From: Desulfobacula sp.
GTDB taxonomy: Bacteria; Desulfobacterota; Desulfobacteria; Desulfobacterales; Desulfobacteraceae
NCBI GenBank assembly: GCA_023701135.1
Contig: JAMPXP010000014.1
Location: 1-64,000, forward strand
Reading direction: 5' to 3'
Length of the DNA: 64,000 nucleotides
Position 1 is the first letter of the stretch. Each line of letters opens with the position of its first letter. The notes below the pieces were generated by a model. The model was not told the DNA's origin and did no database searches. It saw only the letters and a program-made list of their open reading frames with translations. The translations under genes were made by a program, and so were the position numbers. Shown here piece after piece: positions 1 through 54,488 of this stretch.

Positions 1-83
1 CATCTCGAACACGGAAGTTAAGCTCTTTAGCGTCGATGGTACTGCATGGGTGACTGTGTGGGAGAGTAGATCGCTGCCGGATT
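1..83 (+). rRNA. rrf: 5S ribosomal RNA, 3' part
   Basis: The window opens inside a 5S rRNA. The stretch from the conserved CATCTCGAAC to GGGAGAGTAG...GCTGCC matches the 3' two-thirds of bacterial 5S rRNA. The 5' end lies before the window. A strong terminator follows at once, so this is the end of a plus-strand rrn operon. The exact 3' end is uncertain by a few bases. Confidence 0.93.
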
Positions 84-28460: not shown

Positions 28461-30362
28461 TCAGGCTTTTTTTCCATAGCCGATTTTGCCGAGAGATTCC
28501 TCGATCTCATCCAAGATGGCATAATCGTCTATGGTCGCCGGTACCTTATAGTCTTTTTTGTCGGCAATGGATCTCATGGTGCCCCTCAGGATCTTGCCGG
28601 ATCTGGTTTTGGGTAGCCGTTTGACAACGGTGGCGGTCTTAAAGGCGGCCACGGGCCCTATTTTGTCCCGGACCAGGTGGATCACTTCCTTGACGATGTC
28701 CTCCGGGTTCCGGTCTACACCGGCATTCAGCACCATCATGCCCAGGGGAACCTGGCCCTTCAGGTCGTCGGCCACCCCCATGACCGCACATTCGGCCACG
28801 TCGGGATGTCCGGCAATGACCTCTTCCATGGCCCCGGTGGAAAGGCGGTGGCCGGCCACATTGATGATGTCGTCGGTCCTGGCCATGACGTATACATAAC
28901 CGTCTTCATCAATAAACCCGGCATCGGCGGTTTCATAATAGCCTGGGAATTCTTTCAAATAGGAATCCTTATACCGCTGGTCATTCTGCCAGAGGGTGGG
29001 CAGAGTTCCGGGAGGAAGGGGCAATTTGGCCACCAGAGCCCCGATTTCTCCGGGCTTGACCGGATGGCCGTCGCTTCCCAGAACCGCCAGGTTCCATCCC
29101 GGCGCCGGTTTTGTGGGAGAGCCGGGTTTGATGGCAAAACGATGAAGCCCCATGCAGTTGGCGGCAATGGCCCAGCCGGTTTCCGTCTGCCACCAGTGGT
29201 CGATGACCGGAACCTTGAGGGCGTTTTCCGCCCAGGACAGGGTGTCCGGGTCCAGCCTTTCCCCGGCGAGAAAGAGAAAATTAAAACAGGACAGATCAAA
29301 GTTTTTCATCAACAGAGCCTTGGGGTCTTCCCGTTTAATGGCCCTGAAAGCCGTGGGCGCCGTAAACAGGGTTTTGACCTGGTGCTGGGAGATGACCCGC
29401 CAGAAGGTGGAGGCATCCGGGGTCCCCACGGGCTTGCCTTCAAAGAGAATGGTGGAGCAACCTTTAAAAAGCGGGCCGTAAACAATATAGGAATGGCCCA
29501 CCACCCATCCGATGTCCGAGGCTGCCCAGTACACATCTCCTTTATCCACCCCGTAAATGGCGCCCATGGTGTATTTCAGGGCCACCATATGGCCCCCGTT
29601 GTCCCGGACAACGCCCTTGGGCTGGCCTGTGGTGCCGGAGGTGTAAAGGATATACAAGGGGTCCGTGGCTTTTACGGGCACGCAGGCCTGTGGTAAAGCC
29701 GTTCCCATTTCACTCGCCCAGTCATAATCCCGGCCTTTAATCATTGACGCCGTGGCCTGGGGCCGCTGGAAGATGATGCAGGCTTCGGGTTTGGCGTCGG
29801 ACAGATCAATGGCCTTGTCCAGAAGGGGTTTATATTCAATGATCCTTTTTATCTCGATCCCGCAGGATGCCGACACAATGACCTTGGGTTTGGCGTCATT
29901 GATGCGGGTGGCCAGCTCTGCGGCGGCGAAGCCCCCGAATACCACGGAATGGACAGCCCCGATCCTGGCGCAGGCCAGCATGGCAAAAACCGCCTCCGGG
30001 ATCATGGGCATATAGATGATGACCCGGTCACCCTTTGAGACCCCTTTGGATGAAAGAACCCCGGCAAATTTAGAAGCCTGTTCCTTTAATTCGAGAAAGG
30101 TGTATGTTTTGATCACGCCCGTGACCGGGCTGTCATAAATAATGGCCGTCTGATTCCCCATGCCGTTATCCACATGGAGATCCACAGCGTTGTAACAGGT
30201 ATTGGTTTCGCCCCCGGTAAACCACCGGTAAAAAGGCGGGTTGGAATCATCCAGGACCTTGTCCCATCGTTTATACCAGTGGCAGTCTTCCGCAACGCGT
30301 CCCCAGAAACCATCCGGATCATGGATGGATTGTTCATAGGCTTCCGTATACAGATTGAACAT
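28461..30362 (-). CDS. prpE: Acyl-CoA synthetase, propionyl-CoA synthetase (PrpE)-like
   Basis: A 633-residue AMP-forming acyl-CoA synthetase. It has the P-loop-like YTSGTTGQPKG, the adenylation region WWQTETGW and the C-terminal catalytic lysine K590 in PKTRSGKILR, the usual lysine-acetylation site. The segments VVRDNGGHMVALKYTMG, KPVGTPDASTFWRVI and TAPTAFRAIKREDP are closer to PrpE than to Acs, so propionate is the inferred substrate. It follows acs by 27 bases. AGGAGGAGA precedes the ATG. A predicted target of the sirtuin at 7997. Confidence 0.87.
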   Translation of the reverse strand: MFNLYTEAYEQSIHDPDGFWGRVAEDCHWYKRWDKVLDDSNPPFYRWFTGGETNTCYNAVDLHVDNGMGNQTAIIYDSPVTGVIKTYTFLELKEQASKFAGVLSSKGVSKGDRVIIYMPMIPEAVFAMLACARIGAVHSVVFGGFAAAELATRINDAKPKVIVSASCGIEIKRIIEYKPLLDKAIDLSDAKPEACIIFQRPQATASMIKGRDYDWASEMGTALPQACVPVKATDPLYILYTSGTTGQPKGVVRDNGGHMVALKYTMGAIYGVDKGDVYWAASDIGWVVGHSYIVYGPLFKGCSTILFEGKPVGTPDASTFWRVISQHQVKTLFTAPTAFRAIKREDPKALLMKNFDLSCFNFLFLAGERLDPDTLSWAENALKVPVIDHWWQTETGWAIAANCMGLHRFAIKPGSPTKPAPGWNLAVLGSDGHPVKPGEIGALVAKLPLPPGTLPTLWQNDQRYKDSYLKEFPGYYETADAGFIDEDGYVYVMARTDDIINVAGHRLSTGAMEEVIAGHPDVAECAVMGVADDLKGQVPLGMMVLNAGVDRNPEDIVKEVIHLVRDKIGPVAAFKTATVVKRLPKTRSGKILRGTMRSIADKKDYKVPATIDDYAILDEIEESLGKIGYGKKA

Positions 30363-30389: not shown

Positions 30390-32420
30390 TTATTTTTGGA
30401 CCATTTTCCGGATTTCTTCCACCACTTCAGGGTTGGCAAGGGTCATGACATTGCCTACATCCCCCCGGTTAGAGATGGCGCCCAGGACCCTTCTCATGAT
30501 TTTGCCGGACCGGGTTTTGGGCATATCCGGCACCAGCCATACTTTCCTTGGCTTGGCAATCTTGCCGATCTGGTCACAGATGGCATCGGAGATTTTCTTT
30601 GCAAGGGCTTCGCTGGGGACAACACCGGTTTTAAGGGCAATGTACAGATCCGGTTCCTTTCCCTTGATTTCATGGGCCACGGGCACAACGGCGGCCTCGG
30701 CCACCTCCTCCACCACCAGGGCCGCGGATTCGATTTCCTTGGTGCCCAGGCGGTGGCCGGACACATTGATGACATCGTCAATGCGGCCCAAAATTCTATA
30801 GTACCCGTCTTCCGACCGGGTGGCGGCATCTCCGGCCAGGTAGGGCCAGTCTCTCCAATCCTTGCTGTTTGGATTTTTGCAGTATTTTTCAAAATAGGTT
30901 TTGACGAACCGGGCCCTGTCCCCCCATACGGTCTGGAGCATGCCGGGCCAGGGATTCTGGATGCAGATATTGCCAGCAATACCGGCTTCTTTGATTTCAT
31001 TTCCGTCCTCATCCAGGATGATGGGATGGATGCCGGGCACGCCGGGGCCTGCGCTGCCGGGCTTCATGGGATTGATGGCCGGGACCGTGCTGCAGAGGAA
31101 TCCCCCGGTTTCCGTCTGCCACCAGGTATCCACAATAATGGCCTCTCCCTTGCCCACTGCGGATTGATACCATTTCCAGACTTCAGGCTCAATGGGTTCC
31201 CCAACGGTGGTCATGTGTTTGAAATGATAATGGTATTTGGCTGGTTCCTCGGGTCCGAGTTTTCTTAAGGCCCGGATGGCTGTGGGCGCGGTGTGGAAGA
31301 TATTGACATCCAGCTCCTGGGCGATTCTCCAGGATCGTCCGGCGTCCGGATAGGTGGGGACCCCTTCGTAAATCACTGTGGAAGCGCACAGGGCCAGGGG
31401 GCCGTAGACAATAAAGGAATGACCGGTGATCCATCCGATGTCGGCCATGCACCAGTAAACATCTTCGGGATGGATGTCCTGGATGTATTTGGACATGGCC
31501 GTGACATAGGCCAGATATCCGCCGGTGCCGTGCTGGGCACCTTTGGGCTTGCCGGTTGTGCCGCTGGTGTACATTAAAAATAAAGGGTCTTCCGACAGCA
31601 TTTTTTCAGGCTCTATTCTTCTGCCGTAAAATTTTTTAAGCTCTTCGTTGATAAAGAAATCCCGCCCTTTGACCATGGGGGTATCTGAGGAATATTTTCC
31701 CGGATATCGCTGCCAGACAAGGACCTTGTCCACCACCTGGCCGTCCTTGGCCGAGAGTTTGGCGGCTTCGTCGGCGTTGATTTTGTGGTTCAGGGGTTTG
31801 CCGGCCCTGGAATAGCTATCCATGGTGATGAGGACCCTGGAATTGGAGTCCACGATCCGGTCGGCGCAGGCGCTGGCGGAAAATCCGCCGAAGACCACGG
31901 AATGGATGACCCCGAGCCTGGCGCAGGCCAGCATGGTGATGGGAAGCTCCGCCGACATGGGAAGATGAATGGTCACCCGGTCCCCTCGTTTCAGCCCGGC
32001 AAAATCCCGCAAAAGGGCGGCAAATTCATTTACCCGGACATAGAGTTCCTGGTAGGTGATATGCTGGATGGCTTCTTCTTCCCGTTCAGGGACAAAGTGA
32101 ATGGCGGTTTTGTTTTTATTGGCCTTCAGATGGCGGTCAATGCAATTGTAACTGGCATTGATCAAGCCGCCTTTAAACCATTTGTAACAGGGGGCATCGC
32201 TGCAGTCCAGAACCTCATCCCAGTATTTGTACCAGGTCAGGAGTTCTGCATATTCCGTGAAATAATCCGGGAAATTCTCCAGGCTGAATCGTTTAAAGAT
32301 ATCCTCATCCGTCAGATTGGCTTGAGCAATGAATTTTGTGGACGGATAAAAATAGTCTTCTTCCTTCCAGTGCACGGCGATCTGGGCTTCAGTGGTTTCG
32401 ACGACTTCTTGTTTACTCAT
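30390..32420 (-). CDS. acs: Acetyl-CoA synthetase (AMP-forming)
   Basis: A 676-residue enzyme converting acetate, ATP and CoA to acetyl-CoA, AMP and PPi. It carries MYTSGTTGKPKGAQH, WWQTETGGF, the GRIDDVINVSGHRLGT hinge and the catalytic/acetylatable K640 in PKTRSGKIMRR. Length and order match Acs. It is the first gene of the minus-strand locus: acs, prpE-like, symporter, peptide, exonuclease, LemA, DUF294. The start has AAGGAGAT. An inverted repeat lies 70-107 bases upstream. Confidence 0.95.
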   Translation of the reverse strand: MSKQEVVETTEAQIAVHWKEEDYFYPSTKFIAQANLTDEDIFKRFSLENFPDYFTEYAELLTWYKYWDEVLDCSDAPCYKWFKGGLINASYNCIDRHLKANKNKTAIHFVPEREEEAIQHITYQELYVRVNEFAALLRDFAGLKRGDRVTIHLPMSAELPITMLACARLGVIHSVVFGGFSASACADRIVDSNSRVLITMDSYSRAGKPLNHKINADEAAKLSAKDGQVVDKVLVWQRYPGKYSSDTPMVKGRDFFINEELKKFYGRRIEPEKMLSEDPLFLMYTSGTTGKPKGAQHGTGGYLAYVTAMSKYIQDIHPEDVYWCMADIGWITGHSFIVYGPLALCASTVIYEGVPTYPDAGRSWRIAQELDVNIFHTAPTAIRALRKLGPEEPAKYHYHFKHMTTVGEPIEPEVWKWYQSAVGKGEAIIVDTWWQTETGGFLCSTVPAINPMKPGSAGPGVPGIHPIILDEDGNEIKEAGIAGNICIQNPWPGMLQTVWGDRARFVKTYFEKYCKNPNSKDWRDWPYLAGDAATRSEDGYYRILGRIDDVINVSGHRLGTKEIESAALVVEEVAEAAVVPVAHEIKGKEPDLYIALKTGVVPSEALAKKISDAICDQIGKIAKPRKVWLVPDMPKTRSGKIMRRVLGAISNRGDVGNVMTLANPEVVEEIRKMVQK

Positions 32421-32768: not shown

Positions 32769-33422
32769 ATGAGAAATCCTGTTGATAATTTCTGGAATCT
32801 GAAACTGTCCGCCGTAAAAGACAGTCTTGAACATAATAATTTTGAAGTGTTCATTGCCGGAACGGCAAAGGAGGCAAAGGAACTGGCCTTGAATGACATC
32901 ATTCCGAAACTTGGCGTCAAAACCGTTTCCTGGGGCGGGTCCATGTCCTTTGTGGCCACAGGCCTGTTCCATGAACTCAAGGACCACCCGGATATGGAGG
33001 TTCTCAATACCTTTGACAAGAGCCTTACCCCGGAAGAGATGATGGACCTGAGGCGCAGATCCCTGTTGACGGACCTGTTCATCACCGGCACCAATGCCGT
33101 CACGGAATCAGGTCAACTGGTGAACCTGGACATGATCGGAAACCGGGTGGCGGCCATCATGTGGGGACCCAAGAATGTGCTTTTGATCATCGGAAGAAAT
33201 AAGATCTGCGGAGATATCGAAGAGGCCATGATCAGAATCAAGACCTATGCCGCGCCGGTGAACTGCATGAATCTGGATAAAAAGACCCCCTGCCGGGAAA
33301 CCGGGGTCTGCCATGACTGCAAAAGCCCGGACCGGATCTGTAATTACTGGTCCATTACGGAAAAAAGTTTTACCAAAAACAGGATCAAAATCATCCTTGT
33401 GAATGAAGATTTAGGATTTTAA
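32769..33422 (+). CDS. LUD-domain protein (lactate utilisation-like, DUF162)
   Basis: A 217-residue LUD-domain protein. It has VSWGGSMSFVATGL, a tract LFITGTNAVTESGQLVNLDMIGNRVAA that is the LUD hallmark, and a cysteine-rich C-terminal segment (CRETGVCHDCKSPDRICNY). LUD proteins LutB/LutC act in lactate oxidation, but stand-alone forms such as this are common in anaerobes and unassigned. It lies 3 bp from the DUF166 selenoprotein gene in the same orientation, so co-expression is likely. Confidence 0.83.
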   Translation: MRNPVDNFWNLKLSAVKDSLEHNNFEVFIAGTAKEAKELALNDIIPKLGVKTVSWGGSMSFVATGLFHELKDHPDMEVLNTFDKSLTPEEMMDLRRRSLLTDLFITGTNAVTESGQLVNLDMIGNRVAAIMWGPKNVLLIIGRNKICGDIEEAMIRIKTYAAPVNCMNLDKKTPCRETGVCHDCKSPDRICNYWSITEKSFTKNRIKIILVNEDLGF

Positions 33423-33425
33423 CCC

Positions 33426-34055
33426 ATGCAGAAAATCCTTATTTTTCAACAAAACGGGTCGGCCAGGGCTAAAATCGAAGGCATAAAAGAATTCGGCCAG
33501 GGCCGGTTCACTATTGAAACCGTTGATATCGATGTCTCCCTGCCGCCGGTTCTGGATGATACCGCCCCATATCTGCCGGAAACCGTGGAGGCTGATCTGG
33601 TCATGGACTTTCTCAAACACCGGGATCTTTCAGAAGATTTAAGCCTTCTCTGTGAACGGTTGAATATCCCGGTGATTGCTTCCGGCAAAAAACATACCCG
33701 GGGCAAGGCCCTCTGTCCGCCCACCTGATGCAGCCTGTCAAGGCAGGTCTGCCTTGGAGCGTATGGAGAGGTTTTCGGTACCCCGGAAATTGAAATAACC
33801 ACGGAAAAGGGTGTGATTAAAGAGGTCCGGGTTTTAAAGGGGGCGCCCTGCGGGGCCACCTGGCATGCGGCCGAAGAAATGAAGGGCCTGCCGGTGGAAG
33901 AGGCCCTGACCCGGTTCGGCCTCGAAGTCCAGTTCGTATGCTCGGCCGATCCGGCAGCCTGGGACCCCCTATGGGGAAAAAGCCCGGTCCATATGGCTGC
34001 GGATATCCATTCGGCCACACTGAAAATCGCTTTAAAGAACCGGGATAAAAAATAA
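33426..34055 (+). CDS. dfsP: DUF166 family selenoprotein (in-frame UGA read as selenocysteine)
   Basis: One 209-residue frame with a single internal TGA at 33726-33728 (residue 101), between CPPT and CSLSR. The reading continues in the same frame to a TAA at 34055. The part after the TGA holds the DUF166 core FGTPEIEI and GAPCGATWHAAEE. A 7-bp hairpin with loop AGGTCT begins 10 bases after the TGA, as in the E. coli fdhF SECIS. Hence CPPT-Sec-C, a likely redox motif, rather than a pseudogene. I recall the name DfsP (DUF166 family (seleno)protein) for this group; function unknown. A naive gene caller would split it into 33426-33728 and 33813-34055. It follows the LUD gene. Confidence 0.85.
33738..33757 (+). 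promoter_or_regulatory. SECIS element for selenocysteine insertion
   Basis: Pairing U38-G57, C39-G56, A40-U55, A41-U54, G42-C53, G43-C52, C44-G51 (add 33700) leaves the loop A-G-G-U-C-U at 33745-33750. The loop starts 16 bases after the UGA. The apical loop is the same as in the E. coli fdhF SECIS, whose loop starts about 17 bases after its UGA. It would recruit SelB with Sec-tRNA. Confidence 0.82.
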
Positions 34056-34056
34056 A

Positions 34057-34908
34057 TCAGACCAGCCCTCTTTTTTCCATGAGGGCCTCAGGATTTATCA
34101 AATGCCTCTTAAACCATTCTTTTGAACCATTTTTTTGGAGGGCCAGGGATAAAAGTTCTGAAAAATGGAATACCGGTATCCGGTTTTCCGGCCGGGCCCG
34201 GATTTCCAGGTTCAGATGGCACATGGCGCAGGCCGTGACAATACATTCGGCCCCGGATCGGATGGCGCCCTGCATAATTCGGTTCACGAGTTTTTCAGAG
34301 ATTTCGGGCCGGCTGACCGATAAAAAGGTACCGCAGCAGGTAGATAAAAAGGGCCATCGAACCGATTCTCCTCCAAGAGAGGCCATGGTTTTTTCCATGA
34401 GACCGTAATGGTTTTTTTCTTTGTTCATCTTTGGCGGCCTTGCCAGCATACAGCCGTAGTAGGGAGCGATTTTCAACCCCTTGAGCTTGCCGCCGAGGCC
34501 TTTTAATAGTCCCTGATCCTTCATGGTGACCAGCAATTCAAAAAAATGAAGCAATTGGATATCCTTCTGAAAGGGCTTGCCAAAAAGAGTTTCATAGGCG
34601 GTTTGCTTTTCTTTTGAAGCGTTTAATTCCATTTTTGCTTGACTCAGCCTGAGATAACATCCGGGGCAGGCAATGAGCATGGCCATATTTTCCGGGGCAA
34701 GAAAAAGATTCCGGGACGCCAGGGACAGGGCCAGGCGTTTATCCACACTGTGGGTGGAGGAAGAACCGCAGCAGTTCCAGTCATTGATTTCGGAAATCCG
34801 GATATCAAAATGGTTCAGAAAAGAGTTTAAGGAGGCGTTGTTTTCCTTGGCCGTGGTGGCCAGGGAACATCCGGGGAAATAGCTCAGGTTCGATCCGGCA
34901 AGACTCAT
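34057..34908 (-). CDS. hdrB: Heterodisulfide reductase subunit B-like protein (CCG domains)
   Basis: A 283-residue protein with two cysteine-rich CCG domains. First: C14, C46-C47 (DWNCCGSS), C81 and C84 (CPGC). Second: YYGCMLARP, STCCGTF and TACAMC. These bind the non-cubane iron-sulfur clusters of HdrB. The gene overlaps the HdrC-like gene by 4 bp. No HdrA flavin subunit lies in this window, so the complex partner is elsewhere or different. In sulfate reducers, such HdrBC pairs pass electrons between the cytoplasmic pool and membrane or flavin partners. It converges with the DUF166 gene at one base. Confidence 0.87.
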   Translation of the reverse strand: MSLAGSNLSYFPGCSLATTAKENNASLNSFLNHFDIRISEINDWNCCGSSSTHSVDKRLALSLASRNLFLAPENMAMLIACPGCYLRLSQAKMELNASKEKQTAYETLFGKPFQKDIQLLHFFELLVTMKDQGLLKGLGGKLKGLKIAPYYGCMLARPPKMNKEKNHYGLMEKTMASLGGESVRWPFLSTCCGTFLSVSRPEISEKLVNRIMQGAIRSGAECIVTACAMCHLNLEIRARPENRIPVFHFSELLSLALQKNGSKEWFKRHLINPEALMEKRGLV

Positions 34909-35459
34909 GATGCGCCTCCTGAAAATTTGAAAAGGGATGTTATGCTTTTTCTATCTTTCACTTTGGAGGGAAGAAGATCCAGTTTCCTTTTGGCCAGCAT
35001 TTTTAAACCAAGATTCATATCGGAAAACAGATCCTTTTCCGAAAATTTATATTTCATCATGATTTCAAGCTTATGGGTCCGCCCATGGCGGCGTATGGAA
35101 TTGATGACAGCCTGGTGAAAGGACAGGATACCGGGCTCGGCAATCTCGCTGTGTTCCCGGAGGGCCATCTGCCTCAGGGCATCCATGATGGCGGCCATAT
35201 CGATGCTGTTGGGGCATTCCATGGAACAGGTATTGCATCCCACACACAGCCAGATGGTATTGCTCTTTAATACTTTTTCCTTTAATCCGAATTGAATCAT
35301 CCGGATGACGGCATTGGGAAGGTATTCCATATCTTCGGCAAAGGGGCATCCCCCGCTGCAGGTAAGGCAATGCCAGCAGCGGCTTAAATTGGCATGGCTC
35401 AAAGCCTCCACTTCCCTTGCAAAATTTCCCGACGCTTCATTCATCACAATCGCATCCAT
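34905..35459 (-). CDS. hdrC: Heterodisulfide reductase subunit C-like protein (two 4Fe-4S)
   Basis: A 184-residue ferredoxin-like subunit with two [4Fe-4S] motifs: C28-x2-C31-x2-C34-x3-C38 (CWHCLTCSGGC) and CVGCNTCSMEC. It relays electrons to HdrB. ATG 35459 is chosen because AGAGGA precedes it at normal spacing; the longer frame begins in the promoter region. It is translationally coupled to the HdrB-like gene (4-bp overlap). An FNR-type palindrome lies about 76 bases upstream. Confidence 0.87.
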   Translation of the reverse strand: MDAIVMNEASGNFAREVEALSHANLSRCWHCLTCSGGCPFAEDMEYLPNAVIRMIQFGLKEKVLKSNTIWLCVGCNTCSMECPNSIDMAAIMDALRQMALREHSEIAEPGILSFHQAVINSIRRHGRTHKLEIMMKYKFSEKDLFSDMNLGLKMLAKRKLDLLPSKVKDRKSITSLFKFSGGAS

Positions 35460-35534
35460 ATGAGATCCTCTTCCTGAATTGTAAAAAGGCGTGGCCTTTA
35501 TGCAGGACAGTAACATATGAAAACCCTGTTTTCC

Positions 35535-54394: not shown

Positions 54395-54488
<94 letters not shown>

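What the first reader, a model, noticed from the sequence alone, without database searches (positions are those of the whole stretch)
33426..34055. DUF166 protein is a selenoprotein: in-frame UGA plus an fdhF-like SECIS
A single TGA at 33726-33728 interrupts one continuous frame: upstream ends CPPT, downstream resumes CSLSRQVCLGAYGE and carries the DUF166 core. Ten bases after the TGA begins a 7-bp stem with the loop AGGUCU, the same loop as in the E. coli fdhF SECIS, at almost the same distance. This places Sec next to Cys (U-C) after a CPPT motif, a likely redox centre in a family of unknown function. A simple gene finder splits it into two ORFs or calls it broken. Similar proteins may already be catalogued as DfsP.
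Basis: partly seen in the sequence, partly recalled or inferred. Interest (0 to 1): 0.85.

Follow-up and report, generated by a model that had tools for sequence, protein, structure and literature searches.

The report
Selenoprotein DfsP with IscU-like domain
A gene of a Desulfobacula-like bacterium is split by a UGA codon that is really read as selenocysteine; this selenoprotein family is already catalogued, but a predicted fold and the neighbours of its older relatives suggest that its unknown job is handling metal clusters.

Summary
One in-frame TGA (33726-33728, codon 101) interrupts a 209-residue DUF166 protein and a SECIS-like hairpin follows (33738-33757). In 130 loci (own genome, 128 others of the order, one extra record) this codon is TGA in 75, TGC in 46, TGT in 9. 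The hairpin pairs in 88% of cells in TGA loci against 47% in Cys loci, with compensating wobble changes. selA, selB, selD and tRNA-Sec are in the genome. It is selenoprotein DfsP, already in NCBIfam (NF041372) and two reviews: Sec itself is not new.

Inferred here: DUF166 proteins share three near-invariant Cys and a His; the C-terminal domain is predicted to fold like the Fe-S scaffold IscU (best 27 Foldseek rows, but E only 0.03); the Sec-less relatives lie with CODH/ACS subunit genes in 11 of 19 loci and beside SufC/SufB-like genes in 4. Sec101 is an addition next to the shared Cys102. I propose a metal-cluster assembly or repair factor tuned by Sec (0.4). Against: 0 of 157 DfsP loci have CODH/ACS genes nearby, and IscU profile comparison is not significant.

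The parts
33426..34055 (+). dfsP gene, 209 aa + TAA stop, Sec at codon 101 (UGA)
   Evidence: NF041372 323.5 bits, PF02593 136 bits
33426..33713 (+). N-terminal domain (aa 1-96), Rossmann-like in the predicted model
33714..34052 (+). C-terminal domain (aa 97-209), predicted IscU-like fold
33726..33728 (+). UGA, selenocysteine codon 101
   Evidence: TGA 75, TGC 46, TGT 9 of 130 loci
33729..33731 (+). Cys102 codon, the Cys shared with the Sec-less DUF166 type
   Evidence: Cys in 113 of 113 rows
33738..33757 (+). SECIS hairpin, 8 pairs (+13..+20 with +25..+32), loop GGUC at 33746-33749
33849..33851 (+). Cys142 codon (GAPCG)
   Evidence: Cys in 113 of 113 rows
33939..33941 (+). Cys172 codon (third conserved Cys; one column later in the Sec-less type)
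   Evidence: 94 of 95 DfsP-type rows, 18 of 18 Sec-less rows at column 173
33990..33992 (+). His189 codon
   Evidence: 94 of 95 DfsP-type rows, 17 of 18 Sec-less rows, one gap
32769..33422 (+). LUD-domain gene directly upstream (3 nt), probable operon partner in this lineage only
   Evidence: PF02589 161.7 bits; directly upstream in 42 of the 44 loci of the window's clade, 30 of them at 3 nt, and in none of the other 86 loci

Best explanation
The gene makes a full-length selenoprotein, DfsP. Shown by comparison: UGA 101 is kept only as UGA or a Cys codon, and the hairpin after it is maintained only where UGA is used. Established biology, not tested here: SelB with Sec-tRNA binds such a hairpin and inserts Sec. 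Inferred: the protein has a Rossmann-like N-terminal domain and an IscU-like C-terminal domain whose conserved Cys102, Cys142, Cys172 and His189 hold a metal ion or a nascent Fe-S (or Ni-Fe-S) cluster; the Sec-less DUF166 relatives serve assembly or repair of CODH/ACS or other Fe-S enzymes; in DfsP, Sec101 (or Cys101) was added beside Cys102 to make this site more reactive, as an extra ligand or as the chalcogen that transfers sulfur or electrons. The target of DfsP itself is unknown. Odds: selenoprotein 0.97; metal-cluster handling 0.4.
Confidence: 0.4

Rival explanations
1. DfsP is a thiol/selenol redox enzyme or chaperone: the vicinal Sec101-Cys102 pair forms a selenenylsulfide and reduces a partner; the other Cys are resolving or structural.
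For: Sec or Cys at 101 and Cys at 102 in 130 of 130 loci; Sec/Cys interchange at least 16 times on the tree; most selenoproteins are redox enzymes (review abstract).
Against: The third Cys and His189 are as conserved as Cys102, and relatives without residue 101 keep them; no thioredoxin-like fold among the listed fold matches.
Confidence: 0.35
2. DfsP binds and delivers or senses a metal or another soft ligand (Ni, mercury or arsenic species) unrelated to cluster assembly, with its LUD-domain neighbour as partner in this lineage.
For: Cys/His-rich conserved site; LUD gene directly upstream in 42 of 44 loci of the clade.
Against: The LUD neighbour is absent from that place in the other 86 loci, so it cannot be required; no metal-resistance gene was seen among the 10 neighbour clusters scanned.
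Confidence: 0.2
3. The UGA is a true stop, a sequencing error or a pseudogene mark, and the two halves are separate or dead.
For: The own-sequence fold score alone is not striking (z -1.23).
Against: The same TGA in 75 loci with the downstream frame conserved, compensating hairpin changes, Sec machinery in the genome.
Confidence: 0.02

Closest known systems
DfsP, DUF166 family (seleno)protein, NCBIfam NF041372
   Same: Whole protein matches end to end (profile 1-203 of 203, 323.5 bits, cut-off 200); family name states that members are (seleno)proteins
   Different: Nothing that sets this member apart; the family has no stated function in the calls seen
Sec-less DUF166 (PF02593) of CODH/ACS clusters; recalled archaeal COG1810
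   Same: Cys102, Cys142, third Cys, His189, FG.P motif
   Different: Phe or Leu in place of Sec/Cys101 (9 and 9 of 18), a longer loop before it, no His195; encoded with CODH/ACS or SufC/SufBD-like genes, unlike DfsP
IscU / ISCU / NifU_N Fe-S cluster scaffold
   Same: Predicted fold of aa 97-209; three Cys and a His (IscU ligand set recalled)
   Different: No significant sequence relation; extra Rossmann-like domain; Cys102 and Cys172 do not align with IscU Cys in the best hhalign alignment
E. coli fdhF SECIS
   Same: Decamer GCAGGUCUGC, loop at +21 against +22
   Different: Lower stem sequences differ; only the upper hairpin was compared

Membership tests
DfsP (NF041372) | Whole-protein score above the curated cut-off | tested here: met
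   323.5 bits against 200
DfsP (NF041372) | Sec or Cys at the position of codon 101 | tested here: met
   TGA here; TGA 75, TGC 46, TGT 9 of 130; outside the order 13 TGA and 14 Cys of 27
DUF166 (PF02593) | Score above gathering cut-off | tested here: met
   136 bits against 24.4
Bacterial selenoprotein gene | In-frame UGA with conserved coding on both sides | tested here: met
Bacterial selenoprotein gene | SECIS hairpin just downstream, maintained by selection | tested here: met
Bacterial selenoprotein gene | selA, selB, selC, selD in the genome | tested here: met
   all above curated cut-offs; selD itself has an in-frame TGA
Bacterial selenoprotein gene | Sec found in the purified protein | not testable with these tools
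   needs 75Se labelling or mass spectrometry
IscU / NifU_N (PF01592) | Sequence match to the family | tested here: not met
   PF01592 not listed at E up to 0.1; hhalign probabilities 0.5-2.6%
IscU / NifU_N (PF01592) | IscU fold | tested here: inconclusive
IscU / NifU_N (PF01592) | Three Cys and one His cluster ligands at equivalent places | tested here: inconclusive
   3 Cys + His conserved, but only Cys142 and His189 align with IscU ligands in a non-significant alignment
CODH/ACS operon protein | Gene lies among CODH/ACS genes | tested here: not met
   met by 11 of 19 Sec-less DUF166 loci, by 0 of 157 DfsP loci

The most novel reading that the evidence does not exclude
DUF166 is an IscU-like scaffold or repair factor that serves the metal clusters of CODH/ACS and perhaps related enzymes, and DfsP is its selenium version: a nascent Fe-S or Ni-Fe-S cluster is held or sulfurated by a site that includes selenocysteine, a Sec-containing cluster-assembly site.
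Probability: 0.2. Interest if true: 0.85.

Novelty: new member of a known kind. Interest (0 to 1): 0.5.

Why it matters
That DUF166 can be a selenoprotein is in print; what it does is not stated in the passages I saw. If DUF166 is a cluster scaffold of CODH/ACS, an orphan family becomes a testable maturation factor of an ancient carbon-fixing enzyme, and DfsP would be a case of selenium in cluster assembly. The set also shows a useful evolutionary pattern: Sec/Cys exchange needs at least 16 changes on the tree (4 forced by well-supported branches), and the SECIS decays where Cys has replaced Sec, with four near relatives that still carry remnants.

Tried and rejected
True stop or error: rejected, same TGA in 75 loci. 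Solved relatives by sequence: phmmer gave 33 hits up to E 1, of which I read 32 as designed ankyrin proteins (DARPins) or their fusions (best 6e-5), plus one uncharacterised protein; the profile search gave only E 0.055 and worse. I take these as chance likeness of DPLWGKSPVHMAA to ankyrin repeats. SelB co-occurrence: over cut-off in 59 of 74 Sec genomes, 49 of 55 Cys genomes, 217 of 260 without DfsP; it does not discriminate. RNAalifold on 58 sequences gave 6 pairs and a covariation term of only -0.3; of the five pair-count measures three exceeded all 500 shuffles, two did not (200 and 385 of 500), and the +1 slide had more two-sided changes, 25 against 15 cells. Held-out model test: 17 of 17 Sec loci found at 19.7-56.1 bits, but 5 of 27 Cys loci score above the weakest Sec locus (22.2-42.6), and 13 of 27 Cys loci match at the site at E up to 10. 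Neighbours: besides LUD (42 loci) and an ABC-F-like gene directly upstream in 22 loci, no cluster of immediate neighbours was shared widely. Papers: DfsP as a word gave 623 papers, the 20 listed being about other things; 'thymidylate synthase' with MTH774 gave none; 'IscU-like' with selenoprotein none; the CODH maturation search gave 4, of which I saw the listing only. Whole-model fold search was inconclusive.

Full report
1. What is there. The frame 33426-34055 (+) reads through one TGA at 33726-33728. It matches NCBIfam NF041372, DUF166 family (seleno)protein DfsP, end to end (323.5 bits, cut-off 200), and Pfam DUF166. The window lies in a 4.8 Mb genome of 42 contigs; the nearest named records are Desulfobacula MAGs, best 91% protein identity.

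2. Sec machinery. tRNA-Sec 76.8 bits (gathering 47), selB 352.9 (cut-off 242.25), selA 612.9 (267.9), selD 369.8 (125), the last with an in-frame TGA in GAGUASKLG.

3. Homologues. Of 389 genomes of the order, 129 carry DfsP above the cut-off and 137 at E up to 0.001. Codon 101 is TGA in 75, TGC in 46, TGT in 9 of 130. Outside the order, 27 DfsP-type loci have TGA in 13 and Cys in 14; one genome (G517) has one of each. On a quick tree built without residues 93-112, Sec and Cys need at least 16 changes, 4 of them forced by starred branches.

4. SECIS. In TGA loci 88.2% of the cells of the 8-pair stem pair (0 of 1000 shuffles as high); in Cys loci 46.6% (173 of 1000 as high). Among wobble-site pairs, +15/+30 is the most strongly coupled in TGA loci (Cramer V 0.79; complementary in 92%, expected 49%), as compensating C-G and A-U pairs. 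Predicted folding of +4..+42 is stronger in TGA loci (mean -12.9 against -8.4 kcal/mol, p about 1e-11). Gln107 is encoded by CAG in 69 of 69 TGA loci with Gln, against 60% CAG elsewhere in these genes. A model from 58 TGA loci outside the window's clade found 17 of 17 held-out TGA loci (19.7-56.1 bits); four Cys loci of the same clade keep remnants at 33-43 bits and one more reaches 22.2. Results that do not add support: RNAalifold's covariation term is small, two of five pair-count measures do not exceed shuffles, and the window's own fold is unremarkable (z -1.23). The loop and distance resemble E. coli fdhF.

5. Residues. In 130 loci Cys102 and Cys142 are invariant and Cys172 is kept in 75 of 75 Sec and 53 of 55 Cys rows (one Cys row is a fragment). 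Cys97 of 'CPPT' and Cys109 are not conserved. Sec-less DUF166 relatives have Phe (9) or Leu (9) at column 101 but keep Cys102, Cys142, the third Cys (18 of 18 each) and His189 (17 of 18, one gap); 95 DfsP-type rows have 95, 95, 94 and 94 (113 rows left of 134 after removing near-copies; the 95 comprise the 69 rows of alignment A1, chosen from the 130, and 26 from outside the order). So the Sec/Cys at 101 distinguishes DfsP from its relatives; calling it an addition assumes that the Sec-less state is older.

7. Neighbours. Sec-less DUF166 loci (19): in family f80, 3 of 3 sit among CODH/ACS genes (cdhA-DUF166-cdhB-cdhC-cdhE in L172 and L173; the contig of L191 ends inside DUF166); in the order of G451, 11 of 11 lie directly after a MinD-like ATPase, preceded by RACo in 10, CdhE in 8 and ACS in 6, and the loci that lack the further genes reach a contig end there; in f83, 4 of 4 follow SufC/SufBD-like genes; L174 has none of these. 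That makes 11 of 19 with at least one CODH/ACS subunit gene, and 3 more with the ATPase (two of them with RACo) before the contig ends. These loci fall in few families, so they are not independent. The lead came from a table passage of PMC1852104 that lists MMP0976 as COG1810 among proteins specific to methanogens and A. fulgidus, together with MMP0984 CO_dh; that COG1810 is DUF166 is recalled. DUF166 rings in M. jannaschii and M. acetivorans, and in B. subtilis without reaching the cut-off, among 14 control genomes. DfsP loci show none of this: 0 of 130 and 0 of 27 have CODH/ACS subunits, RACo or the MinD-like ATPase in the fetched flanks at E up to 1e-10, and the few SufC hits (3 and 3 loci) are at 25-29% identity, as for any ABC ATPase. 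Genome-level co-occurrence with CdhC is positive but modest and uncorrected for relatedness.

8. Known or new. DUF166 is listed as a selenoprotein family in PMC9312934 (table passage citing its reference 63, Zhang and Gladyshev 2007, not held) and PMC13188914 (table passage naming NF041372, with no Sec motif given); I saw passages of both. These were the only two papers with DUF166 as a whole word. The selenoprotein is therefore a new member of a known family; the IscU-like fold and the CODH/ACS context of its relatives I did not find in the searches made, which cover open-licence papers only.

Noticed in passing
L018 (own genome C39:8198-9124): selD of this genome is itself a selenoprotein gene: in-frame TGA in GAGUASKLG.
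   Followed up: partly
window 32769-33422 (+): LUD-domain gene ends 3 nt before dfsP; the pair is kept in 42 of 44 loci of the window's clade and in no other of the 130 loci.
   Followed up: partly
window 34057-34908 and 34905-35516 (-): Overlapping pair resembling heterodisulfide reductase HdrB (CCG domains) and HdrC (4Fe-4S), below the NCBIfam cut-offs, converging on dfsP.
   Followed up: no
L044, L026, L061, L068: Cys-type dfsP genes of near relatives keep a decaying SECIS-like hairpin (33-43 bits), as expected after recent Sec-to-Cys change.
   Followed up: partly
L178 and L180 (genome G517): One genome carries two dfsP copies, one with Cys and one with TGA at codon 101.
   Followed up: no
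window 33960-34000 (+): The stretch DPLWGKSPVHMAA gives chance hits to designed ankyrin proteins; a trap for automatic annotation.
   Followed up: yes
window 28461-30362 and 30390-32420 (-): Two neighbouring ORFs look by eye like AMP-forming acetyl/acyl-CoA synthetases (YTSGTTG motifs, recalled; ORFs); not scanned.
   Followed up: no
window 1-82 (+) and 54400-54488 (-): A 5S rRNA cut off by the window start, and a tRNA.
   Followed up: no
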